Shown one piece after another: positions 16,757 through 45,373 of a stretch of 64,000 nucleotides of DNA (the first letter of the stretch is position 1; the number at the start of each line of letters is the position of its first letter). Source of the stretch: Phoenix dactylifera (lineage: Eukaryota; Streptophyta; Magnoliopsida; Arecales; Arecaceae). A model generated the notes under the pieces. The model ran no database searches. It was given only the letters and a program-made list of their open reading frames with translations, and was not told the origin of the DNA. The stretch spans positions 248,001 to 312,000 of the forward strand of contig NW_024067685.1 of the NCBI RefSeq assembly GCF_009389715.1. The letters run 5' to 3'. The position numbers and the translations under genes were made by a program.

Positions 16757-17240
16757 TCCATGAAATAGCTTGGCTATGCCAAACAAGCTTCCACCAGTCC
16801 ACTCTACTATGACGCGTGCGCAACGACTCCCAAAAACCACGAACAGAGAAGGAACCCTTCGGAGCATCAATCCACTGCAATACATCCGGCCTTCTGCTAT
16901 CTGGCCGGAATGAAGTAGGAGTACTACTAATGAGCTCAAGCCATGCAGGGGAGTGAGAGATAGGCCAGTGCCACTCCTGGCCATCAATAATAGCCTCCAC
17001 CTTGGCATTCTGCCCAAGGCCAGAATCATAGATAAACTTTTCCCCAAACACCTCAATAAGAGGACCAAGGGGATGCCAATGGTCAAACCAAAGTGAAATA
17101 CTACTCCCGTTGCCCACTCGATATCTCATCTTCCATCGGACAAGGCTGCGAAGACTAAGAATCCTCCGCCAACTCCAAGAGCAATCCCTGGGGCATTTGA
17201 TCTTCCAAATACTTCTGCCTCGCAAAAGATAAGAGCGAAC
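16757..17240 (-). mobile_element. LINE1, piece 2: ORF2 region after the reverse transcriptase
   Basis: The LINE1 segment lies between A2 and composite B. On the minus strand it encodes RGRSIWKIKCPRDCSWSWRR and GNGSSISLWFDHWHPLGPL, matching LINE2 at about 60765-61240. Its outer end CGAAC (17236-17240) is repeated at 46232-46236, where the LINE resumes after 29 kb. Confidence 0.9.
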
Positions 17241-18763
17241 TGATGTGAACCCCGTAAGATAGATTCTTAGAAACCCACGAACAAGTTGATGAATAACCCA
17301 AGAAAGTCTGAAAAATCAGTTTGGAAGAGATAGAACCTTGACCCGATGTTTAGCAAAACATGAACCAAAGGTATAGAAGGTTGTTGACGCCACACCCTAA
17401 TAGAATCAGGATGATAAGTCACTTGAACGCCACAAGGGTTGCCTTGATAAGTTCTAAGTTCAATGAAGAACCAAAGAAGTGAATAACCTCACAATTTTCA
17501 TTCCAATTCAGATCTGCCTGTTTACATAAGGAACACCCTTTTTATAGCCCAAAGGGAAACCTAACAGCCTTTAATTAAAGTCTAATCCCTAGAACAATAA
17601 TGACTCCACTAGTCATAGTTCAGTCTCCTAGGAAATTAATGAAGACAGTTTCCTAGAACATTAATGAAACTCCACTAGTCAAAGTTCAATCTCCTAGGAA
17701 ATTAATAAAGACAGTTTCCTAGAACATTAATAAAGCTCCACTAGCCTTTAGACATTCAGCAACATAAAACTAAATCTGAAAACTCCAGCAATATTTCCAC
17801 CAAGTAAGCATCTAATTTGGCCTAATAATTTCATGGATCATGTTGACTAGTCCACAAGCTATCTTCACGTCCAAATCCACTCCAATAGCCTCTTGCTGGT
17901 TCCAAGCTTCCTCAATCAGCCCATTAAGTGCTTCCTTCATTCTTTTAGCTTTGGACCGAGTGATTGGTCCTCCACCAGTTTGTAATGGATCATCAAGATG
18001 TATCGGACCAGAATGCTCCATACATTTCTCCTTGCTTCCCACGGCCTTGGATAGTCCCTCCTTAGGTTGCTTGGTGGCTGCATCCTGGTTTCCATCATTC
18101 CCCCTCTCCTGAAAAGGATTCGTCCTCGAATCTTCATCACCTGCATCAAAAAGGGAAAGATCAGAAACATTAAATGTAGTACTAACATTATACTCACCTG
18201 GTAAGTCAAGCTTATATGCATTATCATTAATGCGAGCAATGACTTGAAATGGCCCATCTCCTCTAGGGTGCAACTTAGAACGCCGTTTTGCTGGAAATCT
18301 TTCCTTTCTCATATGCACCCAAACCCAATCTCCTGGTTCAAAGATCACTTTCTTCCGCCCTTTGTTGGCTTGAGTAGCATATTGTTCAGTTCTTTTCTCA
18401 ATGTTTTGCCTAACTTTCTCATGCAATTGCTTCATCGTTTCAGCTTTCCTTTTGCCATCTAAACTAGCACGCTCATCAATAGGTAAAGGTGACAAATCCA
18501 TTGGAGTTAAAGGATTAAACCCATACACTATTTCAAAAGGAGAAAAGTTAGTAGCAGAATGCACGGATCTATTATAAGCAAATTCAACATGTGGCAAACA
18601 CTCTTCCCAATTCTTCAAATTCTTCTGAATGATGGCACGCAATAAAGTAGATAAAGTTCTATTAACTACCTCGGTTTGCCCATCAGTTTGTGGGTGGCAA
18701 GTTGTAGAAAACATGAGCTTAGTACCTAACTTACCCCACAAAGTCTTCCAGAAGTAGCTCAAG
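17241..18763 (-). repeat. Array unit 1: outer element 3' LTR and 3' pol
   Basis: The LTR spans 17241-18097, the polypurine tract 18098-18110 (AGGAGAGGGGGAA on the minus strand) and 3' pol 18111-18763. The truncated integrase frame (17812-18762, 316 codons) is fully open. It has private variants (for example TAATAAAG near 17728 and AATTTCATGG near 17827). The unit ends with the target duplication TCAAG (18759-18763) of the inner insertion. Confidence 0.92.
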
Positions 18764-20769
18764 TGATGTGAACCCCTTAAGATAGATTCTTAGAAACCCA
18801 CGAACAAGTTGATGAATGACCCAAGAAAGTCTGAAAATCAGTTTGGAAGAGATAGAACCTTGACCCGATGTTTAGCAAAACATGAACCAAAGGTATAGAA
18901 GGTTGTCGACGCCACACCCTAATAGAATCAGGATGATAAGTCACTTGAACGCCGCAAGGGTTGCCTTGATAAGTTCTAAGTTCAATGAAGAACCAAAGAA
19001 GTGAATAACCTCACAATTTTCATTTCAATTCAGATCTGCCTGTTTACATAAGGAACACCCTTTTTATAGCCCAAAGGGAAACCTAACAGCCTTTAATTAA
19101 AGTCTAATCCCTAGAACAATAATGACTCCACTAGTCATAGTTCAGTCTCCTAGGAAATTAATGAAGACAGTTTCCTAGAACATTAATGAAACTCCACTAG
19201 TCAAAGTTCAATCTCCTAGGAAATTAATGAAGACAGTTTCCTAGAACATTAAGGGCTCGTTTGGTTCGCGGGAAGTATTTTCCCTCCTAGGAATATGATT
19301 CCTGGGAATCAGATTCCTAGGAAGAGGATACCTAGGAAAGTACTTTTGGCATGTTTGGTTAACCATGGAAAAGTGACAAATTTCCAAAGTGCTTATGTTT
19401 GGTTGACCATCCACTTTCCTAGGAAAGTTAAGTATAATTCCTATTATGCCCTTAATAAAAATTAGGTCTTTAATGCCTCTTTAATGCTTCTTTAATGCTA
19501 AAGGATCTTTTTGGGAAAAAACAAAAAAGGAGTGATTCCCACCTCATGGGAAAGTAACTTTCCCATGTTTCTCATGGGAAAGACTTTCCCATGAAATGTG
19601 GGAATCATATTCCCATGGGAATACAACTTTTCCATCTCTCTCCTTTGAAAACTCCAACCAAACAAGAGGCATTTCATTACTTTTCCGTTGACCACACTTT
19701 CCCCCCTCCTTTTCCTGTGAACCAAACGAGCCCTAATGAAGCTCCACTAGCCTTTAGACATTCAGCAACATAAAACTAAATCTGAAAACTCCAGCAATAT
19801 TTCCACCAAGTAAGCATCTAATTTGGCCTAATAATTGCATGGATCATGTTGACTAGTCCACAAGCTATCTTCACGTCCAAATCCACTCCAATAGCCTCTT
19901 GCTGGTTCCAAGCTTCCTCAATCAGCCCATTAAGTGCTTCCTTCATTCTTTTAGCTTTGGACCGAGTGATTGGTCCTCCACCAGTTTGTAATGGATCATC
20001 AAGATGTATCGGACCAGAATGCTCCATACATTGCTCCTTGCTTCCCACGGCCTTGGATAGTCCCTCCTAAGGTTGCTTGGTGGCTGCATCCTGGTTTCCA
20101 TCATTCCCCCTCTCCTGAAAAGGATTCGTCCTCGAATCTTCATCACCTGCATCAAAAAGGGAAAGATCAGAAACATTAAATGTAGTACTAACATTATACT
20201 CACCTGGTAAGTCAAGCTTATATGCATTATCATTAATGCGAGCAATGACTTGAAATGGCCCATCTCCTCTAGGGTGCAACTTAGAACGCCGTTTTGCTGG
20301 AAATCTTTCCTTTCTCATATGCACCCAAACCCAATCTCCTGGTTCAAAGATCACTTTCTTCCGCCCTTTGTTGGCTTGAATAGCATATTGTTCAGTTCTT
20401 TTCTCAATGTTTTGCCTAACTTTCTCATGCAATTGCTTCATCGTTTCAGCTTTCCTTTTGCCATCTAAACTAGCACGCTCATCAATAGGTAAAGGTGACA
20501 AATCCATTGGAGTTAAAGGATTAAACCCATACACTATTTCAAAAGGAGAAAAGTTAGTAGCAGAATGCACGGATCTATTATAGGCAAATTCAACATGTGG
20601 CAAACACTCTTCCCAGTTCTTCAAATTCTTCTGAATGATGGCACGCAATAAAGTAGATAAAGTTCTATTAACTACCTCGGTTTGCCCATCAGTTTGTGGG
20701 TGGCAAGTTGTAGAAAACATGAGCTTAGTACCTAACTTACCCCACAAAGTCTTCCAGAAGTAGCTCAAG
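18764..20769 (-). repeat. Array unit 2, carrying a MITE
   Basis: The LTR spans 18764-20103 including a 481-bp MITE and its TAA duplication; 3' pol follows. An AAG-to-TAG nonsense change near 20068 stops the integrase frame at LTR entry. The start reads ACCCCTTAAG instead of ACCCCGTAAG. Confidence 0.92.
19253..19733. mobile_element. Tourist-like (PIF/Harbinger) MITE
   Basis: This 481-bp non-autonomous element has terminal inverted repeats GGGCTCGTTTGGTTC at the left and its complement (GAACCAAACGAGCCC) at the right, flanked by TAA duplications (19250-19252 and 19734-19736). The empty site is visible in every other array unit as ACATTAATGAAG. The interior has repeated TTCCCATGGG and CCTAGGAA words and no transposase. 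The 3-bp TAA target and GGG start fit the Tourist group. Confidence 0.93.
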
Positions 20770-22291
20770 TGATGTGAACCCCGTAAGATAGATTCTTAGA
20801 AACCCACGAACAAGTTGATGAATAACCCAAGAAAGTCTGAAAATCAGTTTGGAAGAGATAGAACCTTGACCCGATGTTTAGCAAAACATGAACCAAAGGT
20901 ATAGAAGGTTGTTGACGCCACACCCTAATAGAATCAGGATGATAAGTCACTTGAACGCCACAAGGGTCGCCTTGATAAGTTCTAAGTTCAATGAAGAATC
21001 AAAGAAGTGAATAACCTCACAATTTTCATTCCAATTCAGATCTGCCTGTTTACATAAGGAACACCCTTTTTATAGCCCAAAGGGAAACCTAACAGCCTTT
21101 AATTAAAGTCTAATCCCTAGAACAATAATGACTCCACTAGTCATAGTTCAGTCTCCTAGGAAATTAATGAAGACAGTTTCCTAGAACATTAATGAAACTC
21201 CACTAGTCAAAGTTCAATCTCCTAGGAAATTAATGAAGGCAGTTTTCTAGAACGTTAATGAAGCTCCACTTGCCTTTAGACATTCAGCAACATAAAACTA
21301 AATCTGAAAACTCCAGCAATATTTCCACCAAGTAAGCATCTAATTTGGCCTAATAATTGCATGGATCATGTTGACTAGTCCACAAGCTATCTTCACGTCC
21401 AAATCCACTCCAATAGCCTCTTGCTGGTTCCAAGCTTCCTCAATCAGCCCATTAAGTGCTTCCTTCATTCATTTAGCTTTGGACCGAGTGATTGGTCCTC
21501 CACCAGTTTGTAATGGATCATCAAGATGTATCAGACCAGAATGCTCCATACATTGCTCCTTGCTTCCCACGGCCTTGGATAGTCCCTCCTTAGGTTGCTT
21601 GGTGGCTGCATCCTGGTTTCCATCATTCCCCCTCTCCTGAAAAGGATTCGTCCTCGAATCTTCATCACCTGCATCAAAAAGGGAAAGATCAGAAACATTA
21701 AATGTAGTACTAACATTATACTCACCAGGTAAGTCAAGCTTATATGCATTATCATTAATGCGAGCAATGACTTGAAATAGCCCATCTCCTCTAGGGTGCA
21801 ACTTAGAACGCCGTTTTGCTGGAAATCTTTCCTTTGTCATATGCACCCAAACCCAATCTCCTGGTTCAAAGATCACTTTCTTCCGCCCTTTGTTGGCTTG
21901 AGTAGCATATTGTTCGGTTCTTTTCTCAATGTTTTGCCTAACTTTCTCATGCAATTGCTTCATCGTTTCAGCTTTCCTTTTGCCATCTAAACTAGCACGC
22001 TCATCAATAGGTAAAGGTGACAAATCCATTGGAGTTAAAGGATTAAACCCATACACTATTTCAAAAGGAGAAAAGTTAGTAGCAGAATGCACGAATCTAT
22101 TATAAGCAAATTCAACATGTGGCAAACACTCTTTCCAATTCTTCAAATTCTTCTGAATGATGGCACGCAATAAAGTAGATAAAGTTCTATTAACTACCTC
22201 GGTTTGCCCATCAGTTTGTGGGTGGCAAGTTGTAGAAAACATGAGCTTAGTACCTAACTTACCCCACAAAGTCTTCCAGAAGTAGCTCAAG
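20770..22291 (-). repeat. Array unit 3
   Basis: The LTR spans 20770-21625, then polypurine tract and 3' pol. An AGA-to-TGA change near 21471 truncates the integrase frame. It shares several private variants with unit 5 (ATTCATTTAGC, GGGTCGCC, GAAGAATCAAAG, GAACGTTAATG). Confidence 0.92.
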
Positions 22292-23856
22292 TGATGTGAA
22301 CCCCGTAAGATAGATTCTTAGAAACCCACGAACAAGTTGATGAAAAACCCAAGAAAGTCTGAAAATCAGTTTGGAAGAGATAGAACCTTGACCCGATGTT
22401 TAGCAAAACGTGAACCAAAGGTATAGAAGGTTGTTGACGCCACACCCTAATAGAATCAGGATGATAAGTCACTTGAACGCCACAAGGGTTGCCTTGATAA
22501 GTTCTAAGTTCAATGAAGAACCAAAGAAGTGAATAACCTCACAATTTTCATTCCAATTCAGATCTGCCTGTTTACATAAGGAACACCCTTTTTATAGCCC
22601 AAAGGGAAACCTAACAGCCTTTAATTAAAGTCTAATCCCTAGAACAATAATGACTCCACTAGTCATAGTTCAGTCTCCTAGGAAATTAATGAAGACAGTT
22701 TCCTAGAACATTAATGAAACTCCACTAGTCAAAGTTCAATCTCCTAGGAAATTAATGAAGGCAGTTTTCTAGAACATTAATGAAGCTCCACTAGCCTTTA
22801 GACATTCAGCAACATAAAACTAAATCTGAAAACTCCAGCAATATTTCCACCAAGTAAGCATCTAATTTGGCCTAATAATTGCATGGATCATGTTGACTAG
22901 TCCACAAGCTATCTTCACGTCCAAATCCACTCCAATAGCCTCTTGCTGGTTCCAAGCTTCCTCAATCAGCCCATTAAGTGCTTCCTTCATTCTTTTAGCT
23001 TTGGACCGAGTGATTGGTCCTCCACCAGTTTGTAATGGATCATCAAGATGTATCGGACCAGAATGCTCCATACATTGCTCCTTGCTTCCCACGGCCTTGG
23101 ATAGTCCCTCCTTAGGTTGCTTGGTGGCTGCATCCTGGTTTCCATCATTCCCCCTCTCCTGAAAAGGATTCGTCCTCGAATCTTCATCACTTGCATCAAA
23201 AAAGGGAAAGATCAGAAACATTAAATGTAGTACTAACATTATACTCACCTGGTAAGTCGAGCTTATATGCATTATCATTAATGCGAGTAATGACTTGAAA
23301 TGGCCCATCTCCTCTAGGGTGCAACTTAGAACGCCGTTTTGCTGGAAATCTTTCCTTTCTCATATGCACCCAAACCCAATCTCCTGGTTCAAAGATCACT
23401 TTCTTCCGCCCTTTGTTGGCTTGAGTAGCATATTGTTCAGTTCTTTTCTCAATGTTTTGCCTAACTTTCTCATGCAATTGCTTCATCGTTTCAGCTTTCC
23501 TTTTGCCATCTAAACTAGCACGCTCATCAATAGGTAAAGGTGACAAATCCATTGGAGTTAAAGGATTAAACCTATACACTATTTCGAAAGGAGAAAAGTT
23601 AGTAGCAGAATGCGCGGATCTATTATAAGCAAATTCAACATGTGGCAAACACTCTTCCCAATTTAAAAAATCTGCTGGCTTTAGAAGATTCAAATCTCTC
23701 CAAATTAAGTCAGCCACCCTCTCCTTCCATTGTCTCAAGCCCAACTAGGTAACTTTCCTCTATTGCAAGCTACTAATTTTGGGAATCATTTGAATGATCA
23801 GTTGCCTTTGGGAGATTCATTTATCTCCAAAAAAAGTCTTCCAGAAGTAGCTCAAG
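22292..23856 (-). repeat. Array unit 4, with part of integrase replaced by LINE sequence
   Basis: The LTR spans 22292-23147. In 3' pol, the segment that should carry the catalytic-Glu region (about 130 bp) is missing and replaced by about 173 bp of LINE ORF1 sequence (23666-23838), giving a 1565-bp unit. An extra A near 23199-23204 also shifts the frame. Confidence 0.92.
23666..23838 (+). mobile_element. Captured LINE ORF1 fragment inside array unit 4
   Basis: This stretch matches 57260-57433 of LINE2 (from AAAAATCTGCTGGC to CTCCAAAAAAAGTC) with few differences, on the plus strand, antisense to the gypsy array. There are no target duplications or poly(A). It replaces array sequence, with short shared words at the edges (CAATT and AAAGTC). 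The copy retains a base (AATGATCAG) lost in LINE2 (AATGTCAG), so LINE2 in its present form is not the direct source. Confidence 0.9.
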
Positions 23857-25377
23857 TGATGTGAACCCCGTAAGATAGATTCTTAGAAACCCACGAACAA
23901 GTTGATGAATAACCCAAGAAAGTCTGAAAATCAGTTTGGAAGAGATAGAACCTTGACCCGATGTTTAGCAAAACAAGAACCAAAGGTATAGAAGGTTGTT
24001 GACGCCACACCCTAATAGAATCAGGATGATAAGTCACATGAACGCCACAAGGGTCGCCTTGATAAGTTCTAAGTTCAATGAAGAATCAAAGAAGTGAATA
24101 ACCTCACAATTTTCATTCCAATTCAGATCTGCCTGTTTACATAAGGAACACCCTTTTTATAGCCCAAAGGGAAACCTAACAGCCTTTAATTAAAGTCTAA
24201 TCCCTAGAACAATAATGACTCCACTAGTCATAGTTCAGTCTCCTAGGAAATTAATGAAGGTAGTTTCCTAGAACATTAATGAAACTCCACTAGTCAAAGT
24301 TCAATCTCCTAGGAAATTAATGAAGGCAGTTTTCTAGAACGTTAATGAAGCTCCACTAGCCTTTAGACATTCAGCAACATAAAACTAAATCTGAAAACTC
24401 CAGCAATATTTCCACCAAGTAAGCATCTAATTTGGCCTAATAATTGCATGGATCATGTTGACTAGTCCACAAGCTATCTTCACGTCCAAATCCACTCCAA
24501 TAGCCTCTTGCTGGTTCCAAGCTTCCTCAATCAGCCCATTAAGTGCTTCCTTCATTCATTTAGCTTTGGACCGAGTGATTGGTCCTCCACCAGTTTGTAA
24601 TGGATCATCCAGATGTATCGGACCAGAATGCTCCATACATTGCTCCTTGCTTCCCACGGCCTTGGATAGTCCCTCCTTAGGTTGCTTGGTGGCTGCATCC
24701 TGGTTTCCATCATTCCCCCTCTTCTGAAAAGGATTCGTCCTCGAATCTTCATCACCTGCATCAAAAAGGGAAAGATCAGAAACATTAAATGTAGTACTAA
24801 CATTATACTCACCTGGTAAGTCAAGCTTATATGCATTATCATTAATGCGAGCAATGACTTGAAATGGCCCATCTCCTCTAGGGTGCAACTTAGAACGCCG
24901 TTTTGCTGGAAATCTTTCCTTTCTCATATGCACCCAAACCCAATCTCCTGGTTCAAAGATCACTTTCTTCCGCCCTTTGTTGGCTTGAGTAGCATATTGT
25001 TCAGTTCTTTTCTCAATGTTTGCCTAACTTTCTCATGCAATTGCTTCATCGTTTCAGCTTTCCTTTTGCCATCTAAACTAGCACGCTCATCAATAGGTAA
25101 AGGTGACAAATCCATTGGAGTTAAAGGATTAAACCCATACACTATTTCAAAAGGAGAAAAGTTAGTAGCAGAATGCGCGGATCTATTATAAGCAAATTCA
25201 ACATGTGGCAAACACTCTTCCCAATTCTTCAAATTCTTCTGAATGATGGCACGCAATAAAGTAGATAAAGTTCTATTAACTACCTCGGTTTGCCCATCAG
25301 TTTGTGGGTGGCAAGTTGTAGAAAACATGAGCTTAGTACCTAACTTACCCCACAAAGTCTTCCAGAAGTAGCTCAAG
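23857..25377 (-). repeat. Array unit 5
   Basis: The LTR spans 23857-24712. It has the same AGA-to-TGA nonsense change as unit 3 plus a private one-base deletion near 25020, which splits the integrase frame in two. Confidence 0.92.
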
Positions 25378-26900
25378 TGATGTGAACCCCGTAAGATAGA
25401 TTCTTAGAAACCCACGAACAAGTTGATGAATAACCCAAGAAAGTCTGAAAATCAGTTTGGAAGAGATAGAACCTTGACCCGATGTTTAGCAAAACATGAA
25501 CCAAAGGTAAAGAAGGTTGTTGACGCCACACCCTAATAGAATCAGGATGATAAGTCACTTGAACGCCACAAGGGTTGCCTTGATAAGTTCTAAGTTCAAT
25601 GAAGAACCAAAGAAGTGAATAACCTCACAATTTTCATTCCAATTCAGTTCTGCCTGTTTACATAAGGAACACCCTTTTTATAGCCCAAAGGGAAACCTAA
25701 CAGCCTTTAATTAAAGTCTAATCCCTAGAACAATAATGACTCCACTAGTCATAGTTCAGTCTCCTAGGAAATTAATGAAGACAGTTTCCTAGAACATTAA
25801 TGAAACTCCACTAGTCAAAGTTCAATCTCCTAGAAAATTAATGAAGACAGTTTTCTAGAACATTAATGAAGCTCCACTAGCCTTTAGACATTCAGCAACA
25901 TAAAACTAAATCTGAAAACTCCAGCAATATTTCCACCAAGTAAGCATCTAATTTGGCCTAATAATTGCATGGATCATGTTGACTAGTCCACAAGCTATCT
26001 TCACGTCCAAATCCACTCCAATTAGCCTCTTGCTGGTTCCAAGCTTCCTCAATCAGCCCATTAAGTGCTTCCTTCATTCTTTTAGCTTTGGACCGAGTGA
26101 TTGGTCCTCCACCAGTTTGTAATGGATCATCAAGATGTATCAGACCAGAATGCTCCATACATTGCTCCTTGCTTCCCACGGCCTTGGATAGTCCCTCCTT
26201 AGGTTGCTTGGTGGCTGCATCCTGGTTTCCATCATTTCCCCTCTCCTGAAAAGGATTCGTCCTCGAATCTTCATCACCTGCATCAAAAAGGGAAAGATCA
26301 GAAACATTAAATGTAGTACTAACATTATACTCACCAGGTAAGTCAAGCTTATATGCATTATCATTAATGCGAGCAATGACTTGAAATGGCCCATCTCCTC
26401 TAGGGTGCAACTTAGAACGCCGTTTTGCTGGAAATCTTTCCTTTCTCATATGCACCCAAACCCAATCTCCTGGTTCAAAGATCACTTTCTTCCGCCCTTT
26501 GTTGGCTTGAGTAGCATATTGTTCAGTTCTTTTCTCAATGTTTTGCCTAACTTTCTCATGCAATTGCTTCATCGTTTCAGCTTTCCTTTTGCCATCTAAA
26601 CTAGCACGCTCATCAATAGGTAAAGGTGACAAATCCATTGGAGTTAAAGGATTAAACCCATACACTATTTCAAAAGGAGAAAAGTTAGTAGCAGAATGCA
26701 CGGATCTATTATAAGCAAATTCAACATGTGGCAAACACTCTTCCCAATTCTTCAAATTCTTCTGAATGATGGCACACAATAAAGTAGATAAAGTTCTATT
26801 AACTACCTCGGTTTGCCCATCAGTTTGTGGGTGGCAAGTTGTAGAAAACATGAGCTTAGTACCTAACTTACCCCACAAAGTCTTCCAGAAGTAGCTCAAG
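25378..26900 (-). repeat. Array unit 6
   Basis: The LTR spans 25378-26234. A one-base insertion near 26021 (CAATTAGCC) alters the last codons of the integrase frame, otherwise open for 313 codons. It shares CACCAGGTAAG and the altered TTAGCC site with unit 8. Confidence 0.92.
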
Positions 26901-28421
26901 TGATGTGAACCCCGTAAGATAGATTCTTAGAAACCCACGAACAAGTTGATGAATAACCCAAGAAAGTCTGAAAATCAGTTTGGAAGAGATAGAACCTTGA
27001 CCCGATGTTTAGCAAAACATGAACCAAAGGTATAGAAGGTTGTTGACGCCACACCCTAATAGAATCAGGATGATAAGTCACTTGAACGCCACAAGGGTTG
27101 CCTTGATAAGTTCTAAGTTCAATGAAGAACCAAAGAAGTGAATAACCTCACAATTTTCATTCCAATTCAGATCTGCCTGTTTACATAAGGAACACCCTTT
27201 TTATAGCCCAAAGGGAAACCTAACAGCCTTTAATTAAAGTCTAATCCCTAGAACAATAATGACTCCACTAGTCATAGTTCAGTCTCCTAGGAAATTAATG
27301 AAGACAGTTTCCTAGAACATTAATGAAACTCCACTAGTCAAAGTTCAATCTCCTAGGAAATTAATGAAGACAGTTTCCTAGAACATTAATGAAGCTCCAC
27401 TAGCCTTTAGACATCAGCAACATAAAACTAAATCTGAAAACTCCAGCAATATTTCCACCAAGTAAGCATCTAATTTGGCCTAATAATTGCATGGATCATG
27501 TTGACTAGTCCACAAGCTATCTTCACGTCCAAATCCACTCCAATAGCCTCTTGATGGTTCCAAGCTTCCTCAATCAGCCCATTAAGTGCTTCCTTCATTC
27601 TTTTAGCTTTGGACCGAGTGATTGGTCCTCCACCAGTTTATAATGGATCATCAAGATGTATCGAACTAGAATGCTCCATACATTGCTCCTTGCTTCCCAC
27701 GGCCTAGGATAGTCCCTCCTTAGGTTGCTTGGTGGCTGCATCCTGGTTTCCATCATTCCCCCTCTCCTGAAAAGGATTCGTCCTCGAATCTTCATCACCT
27801 GCATCAAAAAGGAAAAGATCAGAAACATTAAATGTAGTACTAACATTATACTCACCTGGTAAGTCAAGCTTATATGCATTATCATTAATGCGAGCAATGA
27901 CTTGAAATGGCCCATCTCCTCTAGGGTGCAACTTAGAACGCCGTTTTGCTGGAAATCTTTCCTTTCTTATATGCACCCAAACCCAATCTCCTGGTTCAAA
28001 GATCACTTTCTTCCGCCCTTTGTTGGCTTGAGTAGCATATTGTTCAGTTCTTTTCTCAATGTTTTGCCTAACTTTCTCATGCAATTGCTTCATCGTTTCA
28101 GCTTTCCTTTTGCCATCTAAACTAGCACGCTCATCAATAGGTAAAGGTGACAAATCCATTGGAGTTAAAGGATTAAACCCATACACTATTTCAAAAGGAG
28201 AAAAGTTAGTAGCAGAATGCACGGATCTATTATAAGCAAATTCAACATGTGGCAAACACTCTTCCCAATTCTTCAAATTCTTCTGAATGATGGCACGCAA
28301 TAAAGTAGATAAAGTTCTATTAACTACCTCGGTTTGCCCATCAGTTTGTGGGTGGCAAGTTGTAGAAAACATGAGCTTAGTACCTAACTTACCCCACAAA
28401 GTCTTCCAGAAGTAGCTCAAG
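26901..28421 (-). repeat. Array unit 7
   Basis: The LTR spans 26901-27755. An AAG-to-TAG change near 27705 truncates the frame at 238 codons. It shares GACATCAGCAAC (two bases shorter than other units) and AAAAAGGAAAAG with unit 9. Confidence 0.92.
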
Positions 28422-29943
28422 TGATGTGAACCCCGTAAGATAGATTCTTAGAAACCCACGAACAAGTTGATGAATAACCCAAGAAAGTCTGAAAATCAGT
28501 TTGGAAGAGATAGAACCTTGACCCGATGTTTAGCAAAACATGAACCAAAGGTATAGAAGGTTGTTGACGCCACACCCTAATAGAATCAGGATGATAAGTC
28601 ACTTGAACGCCACAAGGGTTGCCTTGATAAGTTCTAAGTTCAATGAAGAACCAAAGAAGTGAATAACCTCACAATTTTCATTCCAATTCAGATCTGCCTG
28701 TTTACATAAGGAACACCCTTTTTATAGCCCAAAGGGAAACCTAACAGCCTTTAATTAAAGTCTAATCCCTAGAACAATAATGACTCCACTAGTCATAGTT
28801 CAGTCTCCTAGGAAATTAATGAAGACAGTTTCCTAGAACATTAATGAAACTCCACTAGTCAAAGTTCAATCTCCTAGGAAATTAATGAAGACAGTTTCCT
28901 AGAACATTAATGAAGCTCCACTAGCCTTTAGACATTCAGCAACATAAAACTAAATCTGAAAACTCCAGCAATATTTCCACCAAGTAAGCATCTAATTTGG
29001 CCTAATAATTGCATGGATCATGTTGACTAGTCCACAAGCTATCTTCACGTCCAAATCCACTCCATTAGCCTCTTGCTGGTTCCAAGCTTCCTCAATCAGC
29101 CCATTAAGTGCTTCCTTCATTCTTTTAGCTTTGGACCGAGTGATTGGTCCTCCACCAGTTTGTAATGGATCATCAAGATGTATCGGACCAGAATGCTCCA
29201 TACATTGCTCCTTGCTTCCCACGGCCTTGGATAGTCCCTCCTTAGGTTGCTTGGTGGCTGCATCCTGGTTTCCATCATTCCCCCTCTCCTGAAAAGGATT
29301 CGTCCTCGAATCTTCATCACCTGCATCAAAAAGGGAAAGATCAGAAACATTAAATGTAGTACTAACATTATACTCACCAGGTAAGTCAAGCTTATATGCA
29401 TTATCATTAATGCGAGCAATGACTTGAAATGGCCCATCTCCTCTAGGGTGCAACTTAGAACGCCGTTTTGCTGGAAATCTTTCCTTTCTCATATGCACCC
29501 AAACCCAATCTCCTGGTTCAAAGATCACTTTCTTCCGCCCTTTGTTGGCTTGAGTAGCATATTGTTCAGTTCTTTTCTCAATGTTTTGCCTAACTTTCTC
29601 ATGCAATTGCTTCATCGTTTCAGCTTTCCTTTTGCCATCTAAACTAGCACGCTCATCAATAGGTAAAGGTGACAAATCCATTGGAGTTAAAGGATTAAAC
29701 CCATACACTATTTCAAAAGGAGAAAAGTTAGTAGCAGAATGCACGGATCTATTATAAGCAAATTCAACATGTGGCAAACACTCTTCCCAATTCTTCAAAT
29801 TCTTCTGAATGATGGCACGCAATAAAGTAGATAAAGTTCTATTAACTACCTCGGTTTGCCCATCAGTTTGTGCGTGGCAAGTTGTAGAAAACATGAGCTT
29901 AGTACCTAACTTACCCCACAAAGTCTTCCAGAAGTAGCTCAAG
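28422..29943 (-). repeat. Array unit 8
   Basis: The LTR spans 28422-29277. The truncated integrase frame is open for 316 codons (28992-29942), with HAQTDGQ where other units have HPQTDGQ. Confidence 0.92.
28992..29942 (-). pseudogene. pol: Truncated integrase frame of an array unit (representative)
   Basis: Each unit carries the 3' third of integrase, joined straight to the upstream LTR. This copy stays open for 316 codons. It begins (with TTG, not ATG) just after the second catalytic Asp region, so it lacks the HHCC zinc domain and both core Asp residues. It keeps the catalytic Glu ([10 protein letters not shown]), the [15 protein letters not shown] segment and the basic tail [15 protein letters not shown], encoded in the LTR. 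The first in-frame ATG is at KLMFSTT. It cannot be an active integrase. Equivalent frames are open in units 1 and 9 and broken in the others. Confidence 0.8.
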
Positions 29944-31464
29944 TGATGTGAACCCCGTAAGATAGATTCTTAGAAACCCACGAACAAGTTGATGAATAAC
30001 CCAAGAAAGTCTGAAAATCAGTTTGGAAGAGATAGAACCTTGACCCGATGTTTAGCAAAACATGAACCAAAGGTATAGAAGGTTGTTGACGCCACACCCT
30101 AATAGAATCAGGATGATAAGTCACTTGAACGCCACAAGGGTTGCCTTGATAAGTTCTAAGTTCAATGAAGAACCAAAGAAGTGAATAACCTCACAATTTT
30201 CATTCCAATTCAGATCTGCCTGTTTACATAAGGAACACCCTTTTTATAGCCCAAAGGGAAACCTAACAGCCTTTAATTAAAGTCTAATCCCTAGAACAAT
30301 AATGACTCCACTAGTCATAGTTCAGTCTCCTAGGAAATTAATGAAGACAGTTTCCTAGAACATTAATGAAACTCCACTAGTCAAAGTTCAATCTCCTAGG
30401 AAATTAATGAAGACAGTTTCCTAGAACATTAATGAAGCTCCACTAGCCTTTAGACATCAGCAACATAAAACTAAATCTGAAAACTCCAGCAATATTTCCA
30501 CCAAGTAAGCATCTAATTTGGCCTAATAATTGCATGGATCATGTTGACTAGTCCACAAGCTATCTTCACGTCCAAATCGACTCCAATAGCCTCTTGCTGG
30601 TTCCAAGCTTCCTCAATCAGCCCATTAAGTGCTTCCTTCATTCTTTTAGCTTTGGACCGAGTGATTGGTCCTCCACCAGTTTGTAATGGATCATCAAGAT
30701 GTATCGGACTAGAATGCTCCATACATTGCTCCTTGCTTCCCACGGCCTTGGATAGTCCCTCCTTAGGTTGCTTGGTGGCTGCATCCTGGTTTCCATCATT
30801 CCCCCTCTCTTGAAAAGGATTCGTCCTCGAATCTTCATCACCTGCATCAAAAAGGAAAAGATCAGAAACATTAAATGTAGTACTAACATTATACTCACCT
30901 GGTAAGTCAAGCTTATATGCATTATCATTAATGCGAGCAATGACTTGAAATGGCCCATCTCCTCTAGGGTGCAACTTAGAACGCCGTTTTGCTGGAAATC
31001 TTTCCTTTCTCATATGCACCCAAACCCAATCTCCTGGTTCAAAGATCACTTTCTTCCGCCCTTTGTTGGCTTGAGTAGCATATTGTTCAGTTCTTTTCTC
31101 AATGTTTTGCCTAACTTTCTCATGCAATTGCTTCATCGTTTCAGCTTTCCTTTTGCCATCTAAACTAGCACGCTCATCAATAGGTAAAGGTGACAAATCC
31201 ATTGGAGTTAAAGGATTAAACCCATACACTATTTCAAAAGGAGAAAAGTTAGTAGCAGAATGCATGGATCTATTATAAGCAAATTCAACATGTGGCAAAC
31301 ACTCTTCCCAATTCTTCAAATTCTTCTGAATGATGGCACGCAATAAATTAGATAAAGTTCTATTAACTACCTCGGTTTGCCCATCAGTTTGTGGGTGGCA
31401 AGTTGTAGAAAACATGAGCTTAGTGCCTAACTTACCCCACAAAGTCTTCCAGAAGTAGCTCAAG
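29944..31464 (-). repeat. Array unit 9
   Basis: The LTR spans 29944-30798. The 316-codon integrase frame (30513-31463) is open. It shares the two-base deletion GACATCAGC and AAAAAGGAAAAG with unit 7. Confidence 0.92.
30240..30248 (-). promoter_or_regulatory. TATA box of family B LTR (unit 9, representative)
   Basis: TATAAAAAG on the minus strand, in the context GGGCTATAAAAAGGGTG, is the likely core promoter of the LTR. It is conserved at the same place in all array units. In the array a transcript starting here would run through the rest of the LTR into the next unit's truncated integrase frame. Confidence 0.75.
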
Positions 31465-32986
31465 TGATGTGAACCCCGTAAGATAGATTCTTAGAAACCC
31501 ACGAACAAGTTGATGAATAACCCAAGAAAGTCTGAAAATCAGTTTGGAAGAGATAGAACCTTGACCCGATGTTTAGCAAAACATGAACCAAAGGTATAGA
31601 AGGTTGTTGACGCCACACCCTAATAGAATCAGGATGATAAGTCACTTGAACGCCACAAGGGTTGCCTTGATAAGTTCTAAGTTCAATGAAGAACCAAAGA
31701 AGTGAATAACCTCACAATTTTCATTCCAATTCAGATCTGCCTGTTTACAGAAGGAACACCCTTTTTATAGCCCAAAGGGAAACCTAACAGCCTTTAATTA
31801 AAGTCTAATCCCTAGAACAATAATGACTCCACTAGTCATAGTTCAGTCTCCTAGGAAATTAATGAAGACAGTTTCCTAGAACATTAATGAAACTCCACTA
31901 GTCAAAGTTCAATCTCCTAGGAAATTAATGAAGACAGTTTCCTAGAACATTAATGAAGCTCCACTAGCCTTTAGACATTTAGCAACATAAAACTAAATCT
32001 GAAAACTCCAGCAATATTTCCACCAAGTAAGCATCTAATTTGGCCTAATAATTGCATGGATCATGTTGACTAGTCCACAAGCTATCTTCACGTCCAAATC
32101 CACTCCAATAACCTCTTGCTGGTTCCAAGCTTCCTCAATCAGCCCATTAAGTGCTTCCTTCATTCTTTTAGCTTTGGACCGAGTGATTGGTCCTCCACCA
32201 GTTTGTAATGGATCATCAAGATGTATCGGACCAGAATGCTCCATACATTGCTCCTTGCTTCCCACGGCCTTGGATAGTCCCTCCTTAGGTTGCTTGGTGG
32301 CTGCATCCTGGTTTCCATCATTCCCCCTCTCCTAAAAAGGATTCGTCCTCGAATCTTCATCACCTGCATCAAAAAGGGAAAGATCAGAAACATTAAATGT
32401 AGTACTAACATTATACTTACCTGGTAAGTCAAGCTTATATGCATTATCATTAATGCGAGCAATGACTTGAAATGGCCCATCTCCTCTAGGGTGCAACTTA
32501 GAACGCCGTTTTGCTGGAAATCTTTCCTTTCTCATATGCACCCAAACCCAATCTCCTGGTTCAAAGATCACTTTCTTCCGCCCTTTGTTGGCTTGAGTAG
32601 CATATTGTTCAGTTCTTTTCTCAATGTTTTGCCTAACTTTCTCATGCAATTGCTTCATCGTTTCAGCTTTCCTTTTGCCATCTAAACTAGCACGCTCATC
32701 AATAGGTAAAGGTGACAAATCCATTGGAGTTAAAGGATTAAACCCATACACTATTTCAAAAGGAGAAAAGTTAGTAGCAGAATGCACAGATCTATTATAA
32801 GCAAATTCAACATGTGGCAAACACTCTTCCCAATTCTTCAAATTCTTCTGAATGATGGCACGCAATAAAGTAGATAAAGTTCTATTAACTACCTCGGTTT
32901 GCCCATCAGTTTGTGGGTGGCAAGTTGTAGAAAACATGAGCTTAGTACCTAACTTACCCCACAAAGTCTTCCAGAAGTAGCTCAAG
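31465..32986 (-). repeat. Array unit 10
   Basis: The LTR spans 31465-32320. A CAG-to-TAG change at the polypurine tract (near 32333) ends the integrase frame at 217 codons. It shares CCAATAACC with unit 11. Confidence 0.92.
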
Positions 32987-34507
32987 TGATGTGAACATCG
33001 TAAGATAGATTCTTAGAAACCCACGAACAAGTTGATGAATAACCCAAGAAAGTCTGAAAATCAGTTTGGAAGAGATGGAACCTTGACCCGATGTTTAGCA
33101 AAACATGAACCAAAGGTATAGAAGGTTGTTGACGCCACACCCTAATAGAATCAGGATGATAAGTCACTTGAACGCCACAAGTGTTGCCTTGATAAGTTCT
33201 AAGTTCAATGAAGAACCAAAGAAGTGAATAACCTCACAATTTTCATTCCAATTCAGATCTGCCTGTTTACATAAGGAACACCCTTTTTATAGCCCAAAGG
33301 GAAACCTAACAGCCTTTAATTAAAGTCTAATCCCTAGAACAATAATGACTCCACTAGTCATAGTTCAGTCTCCTAGGAAATTAATGAAGACAGTTTCCTA
33401 GAACATTAATGAAACTCCACTAGTCAAAGTTCAATCTCCTAGGAAATTAATGAAGACAGTTTCCTAGAACATTAATGAAGCTCCACTAGCCTTTAGACAT
33501 TCAGCAGCATAAAGCTAAATCTGAAAACTCCAGCAATATTTCCACCAAGTAAGCATCTAATTTGGCCTAATAATTGCATGGATCATGTTGACTAGTCCAC
33601 AAGCTATCTTCACGTCCAAATCCACTCCAATAACCTCTTGCTGGTTCCAAGCTTCCTCAATCAGCCCATAAAGTGCTTCCTTCATTCTTTTAGCTTTGGA
33701 CCGAGTGTTGGTCCTCCACCAGTTTGTAATGGATCATCAAGATGTATCGGATCAGAATGCTCCATACATTGCTCCTTGCTTCCCACGGCCTTGGATAGTC
33801 CCTCCTTAGGTTGCTTGGTGGCTGCATCCTGGTTTCCATCATTCCCCCTCTCCTGAAAAGGATTCGTCCTCGAATCTTCATCACCTGCATCAAAAAGGGA
33901 AAGATCAGAAACATTAAATGTAGTACTAACATTATACTCACCCGGTAAGTCAAGCTTATATGCATTATCATTAATGCGAGCAATGACTTGAAATGGCCCA
34001 TCTCCTCTAGGGTGCAACTTAGAACGCCGTTTTGCTGGAAATCTTTCCTTTCTCATTTGCACCCAAACCCAATCTCCTGGTTCAAAGATCACTTTCTTCC
34101 GCCCTTTGTTGGCTTGAGTAGCATATTGTTCACTTCTTTTCTCAATGTTTTGCCTAACTTTCTCATGCAATTGCTTCATCGTTTCAGCTTTCCTTTTGCC
34201 ATCTAAACTAGCACGCTCATCAATAGGTAAAGGTGACAAATCCATTAGAGTTAAAGGATTAAACCCATACACTATTTCAAAAGGAGAAAAGTTAGTAGCA
34301 GAATGCACGGATCTATTATAAGCAAATTCAACATGTGGCAAACACTCTTCCCAATTCTTCAAATTCTTCTGAATGATGGCACGCAATAAAGTAGATAAAG
34401 TTCTATTAACTACCTCGGTTTGCCCATCAGTTTGTGGGTGGCAAGTTGTAGAAAACATGAGCTTAGTACCTAACTTACCCCACAAAGTCTTCCAGAAGTA
34501 GCTCAAG
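32987..34507 (-). repeat. Array unit 11
   Basis: The LTR spans 32987-33841. A one-base deletion near 33706 (GAGTGTTGG) shifts the frame. It also has CATAAAGTGC where the other units have CATTAAGTGC. Confidence 0.92.
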
Positions 34508-36027
34508 TGATGTGAACCCCGTAAGATAGATTCTTAGAAACCCACGAACAAGTTGATGAATAACCCAAGAAAGTCTGAAAATCAGTTTGGAAGAGATAGA
34601 ACCTTGACCCGATGTTTAGCAAAACATGAACCAAAGGTATAGAAGGTTGTTGACGCCACACCCTAATAGAATCAGGATGATAAGTCACTTGAACGCTACA
34701 AGGGTTGCCTTGATAAGTTCTAAGTTCAATGAAGAACCAAAGAAGTGAATAACCTCACAATTTTCATTCCAATTCAGATCTGCCTGTTTACATAAGGAAC
34801 ACCCTTTTTATAGCCCAAAGGGAAACCTAACAGCCTTTAATTAAAGTCTAATCCCTAGAACAATAATGACTCCACTAGTCATAGTTCAGTCTCCTAGGAA
34901 ATTAATGAAGACAGTTTCCTAGAACATTAATGAAACTCCACTAGTCAAAGTTCAATCTCCTAGAAAATTAATGAAGACAGTTTCCTAGAACATTAATGAA
35001 GCTCCACTAGCCTTTAGACATTCAGCAACATAAAACTAAATCTGAAAACTCCAGCAATATTTCCACCAAGTAAGCATCTAATTTGGCCTAATAATTGCAT
35101 GGATCATGTTGACTAGTCCACAAGCTATCTTCACGTCCAAATCCACTCCAATAGCCTCTTGCTGGTTCCAAGCTTCCTCAATCAGCCCATTAAGTGCTTC
35201 CTTCATTCTTTTAGCTTTGGACCGAGTGATTGGTCCTCCACCAGTTTGTAATGGATCATCAAGATGTATCGGACCAGAATGCTCCATACATTACTCCTTG
35301 CTTCCCACGGCCTTGGATAGTCCCTCCTTAGGTTGCTTGGTGGCTGCATCCTGGTTTCCATCATTCCCCTCTCCTGAAAAGATTCGTCCTCGAATCTTCA
35401 TCACCTGCATCAAAAAGGGAAAGATCAGAAACATTAAATGTAGTACTAACATTATACTCACCTGGTAAGTCAAGCTTATATGCATTATCATTAATGCGAG
35501 CAATGACTTGAAATGGCCCATCTCCTCTAGGGTGCAACTTAGAACGCCGTTTTGCTGGAAATCTTTCCTTTCTCATATGCACCCAAACCCAATCTCCTGG
35601 TTCAAAGATCACTTTCTTCCGCCCTTTGTTGGCTTGAGTAGCATATTGTTCAGTTCTTTTCTCAATGTTTTGCCTAACTTTCTCATGCAATTGCTTCATC
35701 GTTTCAGCTTTCCTTTTGCCATCTAAACTAGCACGCTCATCAATAGGTAAAGGTGACAAATCCATTGGAGTTAAAGGATTAAACCCATACACTATTTCAA
35801 AAGGAGAAAAGTTAGTAGCAGAATGCACGGATCTATTATAAGCAAATTCAACATGTGGCAAACACTCTTCCCAATTCTTCAAATTCTTCTGAATGATGGC
35901 ACGCAATAAAGTAGATAAAGTTCTATTAACTACCTCGGTTTGCCCATCAGTTTGTGGGTGGCAAGTTGTAGAAAACATGAGCTTAGTACCTAACTTACCC
36001 CACAAAGTCTTCCAGAAGTAGCTCAAG
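34508..36027 (-). repeat. Array unit 12: inner element 3' LTR and 3' pol
   Basis: The LTR spans 34508-35363 and the polypurine tract 35364-35375 (one base shorter than elsewhere). Unlike units 1-11 the pol sequence does not stop at TCAAG (36023-36027) but continues into the full integrase. This is the uninterrupted target site and shows what the outer element looked like before insertion. Confidence 0.92.
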
Positions 36028-36278
36028 AACTTGGCATCTCTATCTGAAACAATGCTCCTTGGCACGCTATGTAGTCGCACTATCTCTTTAAAGAACAAAT
36101 CTGCAATATGGTTAGCATCATCAGTTTTATGACATGGAATGAAATGTGCCATTTTAGAAAACCTGTCTACAACCACAAAAACAGAATCCATACCCCTTTT
36201 TGACCTCGGTAAACCCAACACAAAGTCCATGGAAATATCTACCCAAGGTTCACTAGGTATTGGCAATGGCTTATACAA
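35361..36278 (-). pseudogene. pol: Inner B pol: integrase core and C-terminus
   Basis: A frame of 305 codons covers the integrase core with [14 protein letters not shown] and [10 protein letters not shown] (all three catalytic residues) and the C-terminal segment. Two small deletions near 35368-35382 shift the frame at the polypurine tract, so the LTR-encoded tail is lost. The upstream break is a TGT-to-TGA stop near 36314 in the zinc domain. Confidence 0.82.
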
Positions 36279-36311
36279 TCCATGAGGTAAAGATCTAGAT
36301 TTACCTTGCTT

Positions 36312-37052
36312 TCAGGTGATGCACTTCGCACAAACCCTCTCTACATCTCGTTTCATGTGTGGCCAAAAGAAATGTTCAGCCAAGACATCTAAGGTTTTCC
36401 TCACACCAAAGTGTCCCATTAGTCCCCCACCAAGAGCCTCTCGAACTAATAACTCTCTCAAAGAACAATTAGGCACACATAATCTATTTTCTCTAAATAG
36501 AAATCCCTCATGCCTATAAAATTTTCCAAATGCCGCATGTTCACAAGCTTCAAACACATTACCAAAGTCAGAATCATTAGAATACAAATCTTTAATGTAC
36601 TCAAATCCTAACAATTTAGTATTCAAAGTAGAGATCAAAGTGTACCTTCGAGACAAAGCATCCGCAACCACGTTTTCCTTACCTTGTTTGTACTTGATCA
36701 CATAAGGAAATGACTCGATGAACTCCACCCATTTAGCATGGCGTCGGTTCAGCTTACCTTGGCCTTTCAAATGCTTTAAGGATTCATGATCTGTATGAAT
36801 GACAAACTCCTTGGGCCACAAATAATGCTGCCAAGTCTCCAAGGCTCTTACCAAAGCATACATCTCTTTGTCGTAAGTTGGATAGTTCAAAGCTGCCCCA
36901 TTGAGTTTCTCACTAAAATAGGCGAGGGGTCGGCCTTCTTGCAGCAAGATAGCTCCAATACCTATACTTGAAGCATCACACTCAACTTCGAAAGTTTTAG
37001 CAAAATTAGGTAAAGCAAGTAATGGTGCTGAACTTAGTTTTTCTTTGATCAA
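36312..37052 (-). pseudogene. pol: Inner B pol: RNase H and integrase zinc domain
   Basis: The 246-codon frame holds RNase H ([11 protein letters not shown], then TDHESLKHL) and the integrase zinc domain up to VCAKCIT, where the last zinc-ligand Cys codon has become TGA. The outer copy has ITCKQAK here, which shows the ancestral reading. The 5' boundary is a homopolymer frameshift near 37097-37102. Confidence 0.82.
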
Positions 37053-38053
37053 ATTGAAAGCCGATTCTTGTTCACTTCCCCATTTAAATCCAACACTTTT
37101 TTCACAATTTCAGTTAAAGGTGCAGCTAGGGTGCTAAAATCCTTAACGAACCTTCTATAAAAACTAGCCAACCCATGAAAGCTATGTACGTCAGTTATGG
37201 TTTTAGGTGTAGGCCACTCACGGATTGCCTTAACCTTCTCTTCATCAACCTCAATTCCCTTAGTACTAACAACATAACCAAGAAATACAATTTGACTAGT
37301 ACAAAAAGAACATTTTTTGAGGTTAGCATACAACTTCTCATCTCGCAAAATACTTAAAACCTTATGCAAATGATCAAGATGCTCATTTAAGCTTTTACTA
37401 TAAATCAGAATGTCATCAAAGTATACAATAACAAACTTACCAATAAAAGCATGCAAGATATGGTTCATTAATCTCATGAAAGTACTAGGGGCATTAGTTA
37501 ACCCAAAAGGCATAACTAACCACTCATATAAACCATATTTAGTTTTAAAAGCAGTTTTCCATTCATCACCCTTACGCATGCGAATTTGATGATAACCAGA
37601 TTTTAAATCAATCTTAGAAAAGATGCAAGAACCATGCAATTCATCAAGCATATCATCTAACCTGGGAATGGGGTGGCGATACTTTACCGTAATCTTGTTG
37701 ATAGCCCTACAATCAACGCACATTCGCCAAGTTCCATCCTTCTTAGGCACAAGCAATACAGGAACAGCACACGGACTCAAGCTTTCTCTAACATGCCCTT
37801 TTGCTATCAACTCCTCAACTTGTCTTTGGAGTTCCTTCGTCTCCTTGGGGTTACTCCTATAGGCTGGCCTGTTGGGAATTGATGCACCAGGGATGAAATC
37901 AATCTGATGCTCTATTCCCCTAAGTGGTGGCAATCCATAGGGAACCTCATTGGGAAAAACATCAGCAAATTCCTGCAAAAGAGATATAGCAACACTAGGC
38001 AAAGAAGGTTTAAGGTCGTTAGTATAAGCCTCCTTGTACAGAAGTACAATCAT
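37049..38053 (-). pseudogene. pol: Inner B pol: reverse transcriptase
   Basis: The 334-codon frame contains [32 protein letters not shown] and the catalytic YFDD. It is interrupted downstream by a T-run one base shorter than in the outer copy. The reverse transcriptase motifs are intact. Confidence 0.84.
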
Positions 38054-38061
38054 TGGCTGTT

Positions 38062-39896: not shown

Positions 39897-40379
39897 TGTA
39901 GTAACCTGTCAAGAATGTTAGAAAACCTCACAAGTTCCCCCCCAGGTGTTTTACCCCAATGATATGTCACTCACCAAGTGTTTCACTCTTGCCTTTTACC
40001 TCTCAATTCACTTACATTAGTTCTTCAAGGAACTAGAGAAACTCAAATCAAAGCAATTACCTCGCGATGTACGAACAACTTATCCACGAAACTCAGAGGG
40101 TGGACAAGAATTGAAAAGGATCAAGAATAACAAGTCAAATACTTACTTTCTTTTTCAGTTCAAATCTGTTTCAGAATACCAAACCGAAGCCACAAAATTT
40201 TTTTTTTTTTTTTGCCTCATAATTTTTTTTTCTGTTTTTTTTTTTATATAAAGCACAATAGAGGCACTTTAAACTTCAAGGAATAGAAATTGAAAATATG
40301 GAAAGCAACAAATAAGATGATGAAAAGGCCAAAATAAAATAAGAAGCACCAAGGATAGAAACTGATTTAGAAGACCTAT
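39897..40379 (-). other. Inner B 5' untranslated leader
   Basis: This non-coding leader has long T/A runs (about 40197-40250). It is collinear with the outer leader. No coding frame is supported. Confidence 0.7.
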
Positions 40380-40391
40380 GCTCTGATACCA
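40380..40391 (-). other. Inner B primer-binding site
   Basis: TGGTATCAGAGC on the minus strand, two bases from the LTR, is the initiator-Met-tRNA type. Confidence 0.9.
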
Positions 40392-40393
40392 AC

Positions 40394-41248: not shown

Positions 41249-41253
41249 TCAAG
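41249..41253. other. TCAAG target duplication, right copy
   Basis: TCAAG directly follows the inner 5' LTR and is followed by the outer integrase sequence (AACTTAGC). Its partner is 18759-18763, and the unoccupied site is seen at 36023-36027. Confidence 0.92.
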
Positions 41254-43280: not shown

Positions 43281-43288
43281 TGGCTGTT

Positions 43289-45371: not shown

Positions 45372-45373
45372 AC

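What the first reader, a model, noticed from the sequence alone, without database searches (positions are those of the whole stretch)
17241..36027. Satellite-like array made from LTR plus truncated integrase, with its seed event still readable
Seen: eleven ~1.52-kb units each end at the same integrase position (GTAGCTCAAG) and are joined directly to the next LTR. A twelfth continues into a full element. The same TCAAG occurs at the far end of the inner element (41249-41253), followed by the rest of the outer integrase. The junction is therefore a target-site duplication: one B element inserted into another in the same orientation. That created LTR-3'pol-LTR-3'pol in direct tandem, a substrate for unequal crossing-over. 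Inference: the array grew from this seed, as a route from nested retrotransposon to satellite. Tandem repeats derived from CRM elements are known in maize and from retrotransposons in potato, but a self-insertion seed preserved beside its array is worth examination.
Basis: partly seen in the sequence, partly recalled or inferred. Interest (0 to 1): 0.93.

Follow-up and report, generated by a model that had tools for sequence, protein, structure and literature searches.

The report
Retrotransposon self-insertion that seeded tandem array
A plant retrotransposon jumped into another copy of itself, and the short direct repeat this made appears to have grown by recombination into a twelve-unit satellite-like array, with the original insertion scar still readable beside it.

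Summary
Twelve head-to-tail units (LTR plus ~666 bp of integrase end; minus strand) start at 17241...34508. All 11 unit-to-unit junctions are the same GTAGCTCAAG|TGATGTGAAC. The inner element (34508-41248) is bounded by TCAAG duplications; the outer element (17241-46231), which encloses the array, by CGAAC. The outer halves match the inner element's uninterrupted site at 49 of 50 bases.

The window lies in a 773-Mb assembly, very probably date palm. The junction occurs 11 times there, all here, even with 3 mismatches allowed. Three LTR substitutions are in 12 of 12 array LTRs and in 0 of 24 comparison LTRs, so this LTR stretch spread from one copy through the whole array after the self-insertion. 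Shared variants are mosaic and neighbour-biased, as unequal exchange or gene conversion predicts; the mechanism is inferred.

Nested TE insertion as a satellite seed has been proposed before; a same-family insertion with both target-site duplications preserved beside its array is a new variant. It is one ~18.8-kb locus, not yet a satellite; unit number rests on one assembly.

The parts
17236..17240 (.). left target-site duplication CGAAC of the outer element, in a host LINE copy
   Evidence: matches 46232-46236
17241..46231 (-). outer B element (CRM-like Ty3/gypsy), containing the array and the inner element
17241..18763 (-). unit U01; its LTR is at the outer element's own 3' LTR position
18764..20769 (-). 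unit U02, interrupted by a MITE-like insert
19253..19733 (.). MITE-like insert with terminal inverted repeats and TAA duplication, in U02 only
   Evidence: sequence shown
20770..22291 (-). unit U03
22292..23856 (-). unit U04, with filler replacing part of the integrase tail
23660..23844 (.). LINE-like filler in U04, 93.6% identical to 57254-57439
23857..25377 (-). unit U05
25378..26900 (-). unit U06
26901..28421 (-). unit U07
28422..29943 (-). unit U08; its 316-aa open frame runs 286 bp into the LTR
29944..31464 (-). unit U09
31465..32986 (-). unit U10
32987..34507 (-). unit U11; ends in the left TCAAG duplication of the inner element
34503..34507 (.). left target-site duplication TCAAG of the inner element; the same TCAAG|LTR junction ends each of U01 to U11
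34508..41248 (-). inner B element, inserted in the same orientation into the outer element's integrase region
34508..36027 (-). U12: the inner element's own 3' LTR and integrase tail, continuing into the rest of the element
40394..41248 (-). 5' LTR of the inner element (I5), comparison sequence
41249..41253 (.). right target-site duplication TCAAG of the inner element
41249..45373 (-). rest of the outer element's internal region
45374..46231 (-). 5' LTR of the outer element (O5), comparison sequence
46232..46236 (.). right target-site duplication CGAAC of the outer element

Best explanation
A CRM-like Ty3/gypsy element (B, outer) inserted into a LINE copy. A second B element then inserted into it, in the same orientation, at TCAAG in the integrase core (shown). 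That placed integrase tail-3' LTR (outer) directly next to integrase tail-3' LTR (inner), a direct repeat of ~1.52 kb whose junction is the insertion scar itself (shown). Unequal sister-chromatid exchange or non-allelic gene conversion between the two repeats then multiplied the unit to 12 (inferred). In the LTR stretch that carries three new substitutions, all array LTRs, including the two terminal ones, descend from one copy that spread after the self-insertion (the sites are shown, the process is inferred). A MITE-like element in U02 and LINE-like filler in U04 are each found in one unit only, so they probably came after those units formed.
For: 11 of 11 junctions identical. TCAAG duplications on the inner element and CGAAC on the outer. 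Outer halves match the inner's uninterrupted site at 49 of 50 bases. Junction found 11 times in the 773-Mb assembly, all in this array, with 0 hits for the reversed-pattern control; a 23-base version with up to 3 mismatches gave the same 11 places, one of them with 2 mismatches. LTR columns 325 (C>A), 363 (A>G) and 475 (A>G) are derived in 12 of 12 array LTRs and ancestral in I5, O5 and 22 of 22 LTRs at other loci. Array LTRs differ from each other by 1.13% on average, less than from I5 (1.88%) or O5 (2.46%). Units sharing a variant are closer together than in shuffled orders: fraction of shuffles at or below observed 0.041 for all 16 shared variants, 0.017-0.021 in three reduced sets. 27 of 120 site pairs fail the four-gamete test (24 of 105, counted from its list, without one ambiguous site), pointing to exchange between units or recurrent mutation.
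Against: The exchange mechanism is not directly seen, and the neighbour effect is modest. LTR distances alone do not tie the array to these two elements: array LTRs are on average as close to the 22 other-locus LTRs (1.75%) as to I5 or O5; the tie rests on junction, duplications and continuity. The integrase tails carry no marker that separates outer from inner origin. Columns 363 and 475 lie in a 66-bp subrepeat region of the LTR (LTR positions ~346-502), so conversion inside an LTR could have affected them; column 325 lies outside it. The 22 comparison LTRs are not all independent (five from one tandem, several from the same element, two contigs probably alleles). Homogenisation of an already grown array would also spread the three sites. 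Unit number rests on one assembly. The greater age of the outer element rests on nesting; derived-site counts (O5 11, I5 8) are too close to prove it. On re-checking, confidence was lowered from 0.87 to 0.82 because of the LTR distances and because the rivals overlapped it.
Confidence: 0.82

Rival explanations
1. Same seed, but amplified through a circle: recombination between the outer and inner 3' LTRs pops out a one-unit circle, which is copied by rolling circle and recombines back at this locus.
For: A one-unit circle from this seed would carry exactly the observed junction; three substitutions shared by all 12 LTRs fit one founding unit.
Against: A concatemer starts with identical units and no order effect; neighbour bias and mosaic variants then need later local exchange. 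The junction was found at no other locus of the assembly, so there is no sign of re-insertion elsewhere.
Confidence: 0.12
2. Autointegration: a B cDNA attacked its own integrase region, giving a small circle of integrase tail plus LTR that later formed the array, with the nested element unrelated to it.
For: Autointegration deletion circles (recalled, not from a call) would have an LTR-end|internal junction of this type.
Against: The same TCAAG borders the inner element on both sides within the adjoining outer element; two independent events at the same site would be needed. The array lies between the outer element's own duplications.
Confidence: 0.02
3. Internal deletion as proposed for maize CRM1TR/CRM4TR: illegitimate recombination removed an element's interior, giving LTR-part~LTR, then growth.
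For: Unit composition (LTR plus adjacent internal DNA) is similar (PMC3648361, Discussion read).
Against: The junction is exactly an LTR terminus plus a 5-bp duplication that recurs at the far end of the inner element; a deletion would not predict that.
Confidence: 0.01
4. Assembly artefact that multiplied one or a few real units.
For: No reads could be inspected; some differences are single-base indels in homopolymer runs, for example two in U12.
Against: Units are distinguishable: among the 55 pairs of the 11 units other than U04, the closest differ at 8 aligned columns, gaps counted, and U02 and U04 carry unique inserts.
Confidence: 0.03

Closest known systems
CRM1TR and CRM4TR tandem repeats of maize (Sharma et al. 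2013, PMC3648361; abstract and Discussion read)
   Same: Tandem repeats made wholly from centromeric-retrotransposon LTR and adjoining internal DNA; [quoted passage not shown]
   Different: Their units begin at points within the LTR and end in the UTR, and they propose successive deletions with growth by gene conversion; no target-site duplication anchors the junction in the parts read. Here the junction is an insertion scar in the integrase region, with the seed beside it.
TE double insertion as satellite substrate (McGurk and Barbash 2018; not held; known here only from a review's account in PMC12628747, and reference lists)
   Same: Two insertions of the same TE give tandem copies that unequal exchange can expand; the review reports a hobo expansion to 16 tandem copies.
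   Different: By the review's account the routes are repeated insertion into one target site, rolling circle, or recombination between LTRs of two elements; here the second copy landed inside the first and the unit is a partial element.
LTR-sharing tandem LTR retrotransposons (Morales-Diaz et al. 2025, PMC11899658; abstract, passages and Discussion read)
   Same: Tandems of LTR-retrotransposon sequence in plant genomes. The same B family also forms such a tandem on contig C663.
   Different: Those units are whole elements sharing LTRs; nested insertion was ruled out at their first locus, and the Discussion leaves open complex insertion or recombination. Here nested insertion is the seed.
Satellites from tandem subrepeats in Ogre 3' UTRs (Lathyrus sativus, PMC7004042; passages read)
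   Same: Retrotransposon-derived tandem repeats that expand.
   Different: Those grow from short repeats already inside the element; B's own 66-bp LTR subrepeat is not the amplified unit.

Membership tests
CRM clade of plant chromoviruses, group A (features from PMC3059260, passages read) | LTR ends TGATG...T/CATCA (most elements) | tested here: met
   On the minus strand the inner element's LTRs start TGATG and end CATCA; the outer 5' LTR has one substitution near its start
CRM clade of plant chromoviruses, group A (features from PMC3059260, passages read) | polyprotein frame runs into the 3' LTR (all group A elements) | tested here: met
   U08 frame 28992-29942 overlaps its LTR (28422-29277) by 286 bp; element A's frame 3768-6794 likewise overlaps its LTR repeat 3193-3974
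CRM clade of plant chromoviruses, group A (features from PMC3059260, passages read) | tRNA-Met primer binding site and purine tract before the 3' LTR | tested here: inconclusive
   GTTGGTATCAGAGC follows the 5' LTR and AGGAGAGGGGGAA precedes the 3' LTR in family members; the match to tRNA-Met is recalled, not run
CRM clade of plant chromoviruses, group A (features from PMC3059260, passages read) | CR motif at the integrase C-terminus (most group A elements) | not testable with these tools
   Motif shown only in a figure; Pfam gives the SH3 (Tf2-1) module and no chromodomain at E <= 0.001
CRM clade of plant chromoviruses, group A (features from PMC3059260, passages read) | clade position by reverse-transcriptase phylogeny | not tested
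   No named CRM reference sequences were at hand
Ty3/gypsy order of domains | gag, protease, RT, RNase H, integrase in that order | tested here: met
   Retrotrans_gag, RVT_1, RT_RNaseH, Integrase_H2C2, rve and SH3_Tf2-1 in order on the minus strand of the inner element, in several separate frames; the piece 38062-39246 between gag and RT had no Pfam hit, so a protease was not detected
Satellite DNA | long head-to-tail arrays, highly abundant | tested here: not met
   One locus, 12 units; junction 11 times in the assembly, all here
LTR-sharing tandem LTR retrotransposon | whole internal regions separated by single shared LTRs | tested here: not met
   Units hold only ~666 bp of internal DNA; C663 is the contrasting example

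The most novel reading that the evidence does not exclude
Same-orientation self-insertion is a general route from LTR retrotransposon to satellite. Elements that target each other's territory build their own direct repeats, whose unit is set by the insertion site, and orientation decides their fate. The palm genome holds a direct self-insertion that amplified and an inverted one, on C49, with no array in the 1.5-kb flanks held (one of each).
Probability: 0.35. Interest if true: 0.8.

Novelty: new variant of a known kind. Interest (0 to 1): 0.62.

Why it matters
How a dispersed transposon turns into a tandem array is usually guessed from old, homogenised satellites whose first step is gone. Here the first step (insertion scar with both duplications), the amplified product and other copies of the same family for rooting variants are all available, so the order of events can be tested. 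In CRM-like elements the route also bears on how centromeric repeats could be renewed.

Tried and rejected
Rejected: coincidental repeat; autointegration as sole source; deletion origin; multiple independent insertions at one site (would leave whole elements, not LTR plus tail). Tried without result: using integrase tails to tell outer from inner origin (no separating substitutions). Columns 446, 459 and 479, where I5 and O5 differ and the state of one or other is also seen in some units or other loci, hint that both elements contributed, but are few and lie inside the 66-bp subrepeat region. An allelic contig was sought with the right flank and not found (only C38 matches at full length; next best 67% over part; the first ~150 bases are a dispersed repeat). 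A genome-wide count of B LTR ends, to find all B-in-B insertions, did not complete. Ages: 8 and 11 derived substitutions in I5 and O5 give ~0.7 and ~1 My at 1.3e-8 per site per year, and about five times more at slower palm rates; both rates are recalled, so only the order is relied on. One search's site table is superseded: 13 of 22 other-locus LTRs were in the wrong orientation. One search's integrase-tail distances for U12 and U04 are inflated by a misplaced gap and by the filler; one search replaces them.
Full report
WHERE IT IS. The window is C38:248001-312000 of a genome of 773,078,369 bases in 2391 contigs. C38 is 1,454,523 bases long. The best of 120 listed protein relatives of a unit's open frame, P0001, is named by its source as Phoenix dactylifera LOC120104803 and lies on a contig of the same length, 1,454,523. 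Its first 55 residues match 22907-23071 in U04 exactly, and its end reads like the variant frame of U01. The host is therefore very probably date palm, and that annotated gene is probably a model built from array pieces. Species identity is an inference.

ANATOMY. On the minus strand the inner element shows gag, RT, RNase H and integrase domains in order, in separate frames and without a detected protease. Units consist of an LTR (855-857 bp) and ~666 bp of adjoining internal DNA that encodes the end of the integrase (664 in U12, 709 in U04). Unit starts and the 11 identical junctions are given. The inner element 34508-41248 is bounded by TCAAG and the outer element 17241-46231 by CGAAC. The outer element itself interrupts a LINE copy whose pieces lie at 16756-17240 and from 46232. 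Joining the outer halves with one TCAAG matches the inner element's own uninterrupted sequence at 49 of 50 bases.

UNIQUENESS. The 20-base junction occurs 11 times in the whole assembly, all in this array; the reversed-pattern control gave 0. A 23-base version with up to 3 mismatches gave the same 11 places, one of them with 2 mismatches. An incomplete assembly could hide others.

ONE ANCESTOR, SPREAD AFTER THE INSERTION. The LTR search scored 40 of 68 first-look candidates and returned 42 matches, of which 30 became loci. The 22 from other contigs were aligned with the 12 array LTRs and the two 5' LTRs; 9 further matches on other contigs, two of them partial, had no locus of their own and were not put in the alignment. 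The 22 were ranked by likeness to I5 and are not all independent. Substitutions at columns 325, 363 and 475 are in 12 of 12 array LTRs and in 0 of 24 others. Since the two LTRs of an element are normally identical at insertion (established knowledge), these changes arose later in a 3' LTR and reached all units, including the outer element's own 3' LTR position (U01) and the inner element's (U12); the step into U12 must postdate the self-insertion. Most I5-O5 differences are private to one of them. Derived-site counts are 4-13 in array LTRs (mean 7.7), 8 in I5 and 11 in O5. Against a simple reading, array LTRs are no closer to I5 (1.88%) and O5 (2.46%) than to the other-locus LTRs (1.75%), so distance alone does not name the parents.

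HOW IT GREW. Sixteen variants are shared by 2 to 11 units. One (integrase-tail column 4) is ambiguous because of a homopolymer deletion in U12 and was dropped. Sharers are closer than in shuffled orders: 2.65 against 4.34 unit steps, 0.041 of shuffles; 2.42 with 15 sites, 0.021; 2.21 with 13 sites, 0.017; 2.63 with 10 distinct sets, 0.018. 27 of 120 site pairs fail the four-gamete test (24 of 105 without the ambiguous site, counted from its list). U03, for example, shares four variants with U05 alone and one with U06 alone. This fits repeated local exchange or conversion better than a once-inserted concatemer left alone; recurrent mutation could explain some of it. Which process acted is inferred.

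RELATED CASES IN THE SAME GENOME. On C663, seven B LTRs between 116399 and 163276 separate internal regions in one orientation (the last internal region is interrupted between 148253 and 158854): an LTR-sharing tandem, a different structure. On C49, a B element (616816-623560) sits inside an older B copy in inverted orientation, with GTAAG at both ends; no array is seen in the 1.5-kb flanks held. Among the 22 non-C38 LTR loci that is the only B-in-B insertion seen; L034 adjoins a more distant relative (71%).

LITERATURE. Sharma et al. 2013 (PMC3648361; abstract and Discussion read) raised nested insertion as a possible source of maize CRM tandem repeats but proposed successive deletions. Morales-Diaz et al. 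2025 (PMC11899658; abstract, passages and Discussion) describe LTR-sharing tandems, rule out nesting at their first locus and leave the mechanism open. The review PMC12628747 (passages) reports McGurk and Barbash's double-insertion model; that paper itself is not held. PMC9659126, PMC7004042, PMC4079200, PMC3059260 and PMC12371157 were read in passages only. Searches listed no title or abstract start describing a self-insertion with both duplications preserved beside its array, and ('self-insertion' with three other terms) found 0 papers; most listed papers were not opened, and subscription papers are largely missing from the library.

VERDICT. The self-insertion seed is shown as firmly as sequence alone allows. 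Amplification from it is well supported; the exchange mechanism is inferred. The locus is a satellite-like array, not an established satellite, and its centromeric position is untested.

Noticed in passing
G000 C663:116399-163276 (L039-L045): Seven LTRs of the same family separate internal regions in tandem, an LTR-sharing array; the five bases flanking its two ends do not match.
   Followed up: partly
G000 C49:616816-623560 (L022, L031): A B element inserted in inverted orientation into an older B copy with GTAAG duplications; no array in the flanks held. The older copy itself shows internal region, partial LTR and integrase tail in a row, as in an LTR-sharing tandem.
   Followed up: partly
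window 17241-23856: Annotated protein LOC120104803 (P0001) appears to be a gene model assembled from array units U04 and U01, so probably not a real gene.
   Followed up: partly
window 19253-19733: MITE-like insert with inverted ends and a TAA duplication, only in U02.
   Followed up: partly
window 23660-23844: LINE-like sequence replaces part of U04, like templated break-repair filler; 93.6% identical to 57254-57439, so the donor may be another copy.
   Followed up: partly
window 3193-9773 and 10154-16757: Two copies of a related element (A), 97.9% identical to each other and about 74-77% to B where they align; the second interrupts the same LINE copy as the outer B.
   Followed up: no
window 62886-63977: Open frame with a C2H2 zinc finger; only C38 matches this flank at full length in the assembly, next best 67% on C8.
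   Followed up: partly
G000 C1665 and C1178 (L011, L015, L020, L027): B copies with identical 25-base flanks on two contigs, probably the two alleles kept as separate contigs.
   Followed up: no
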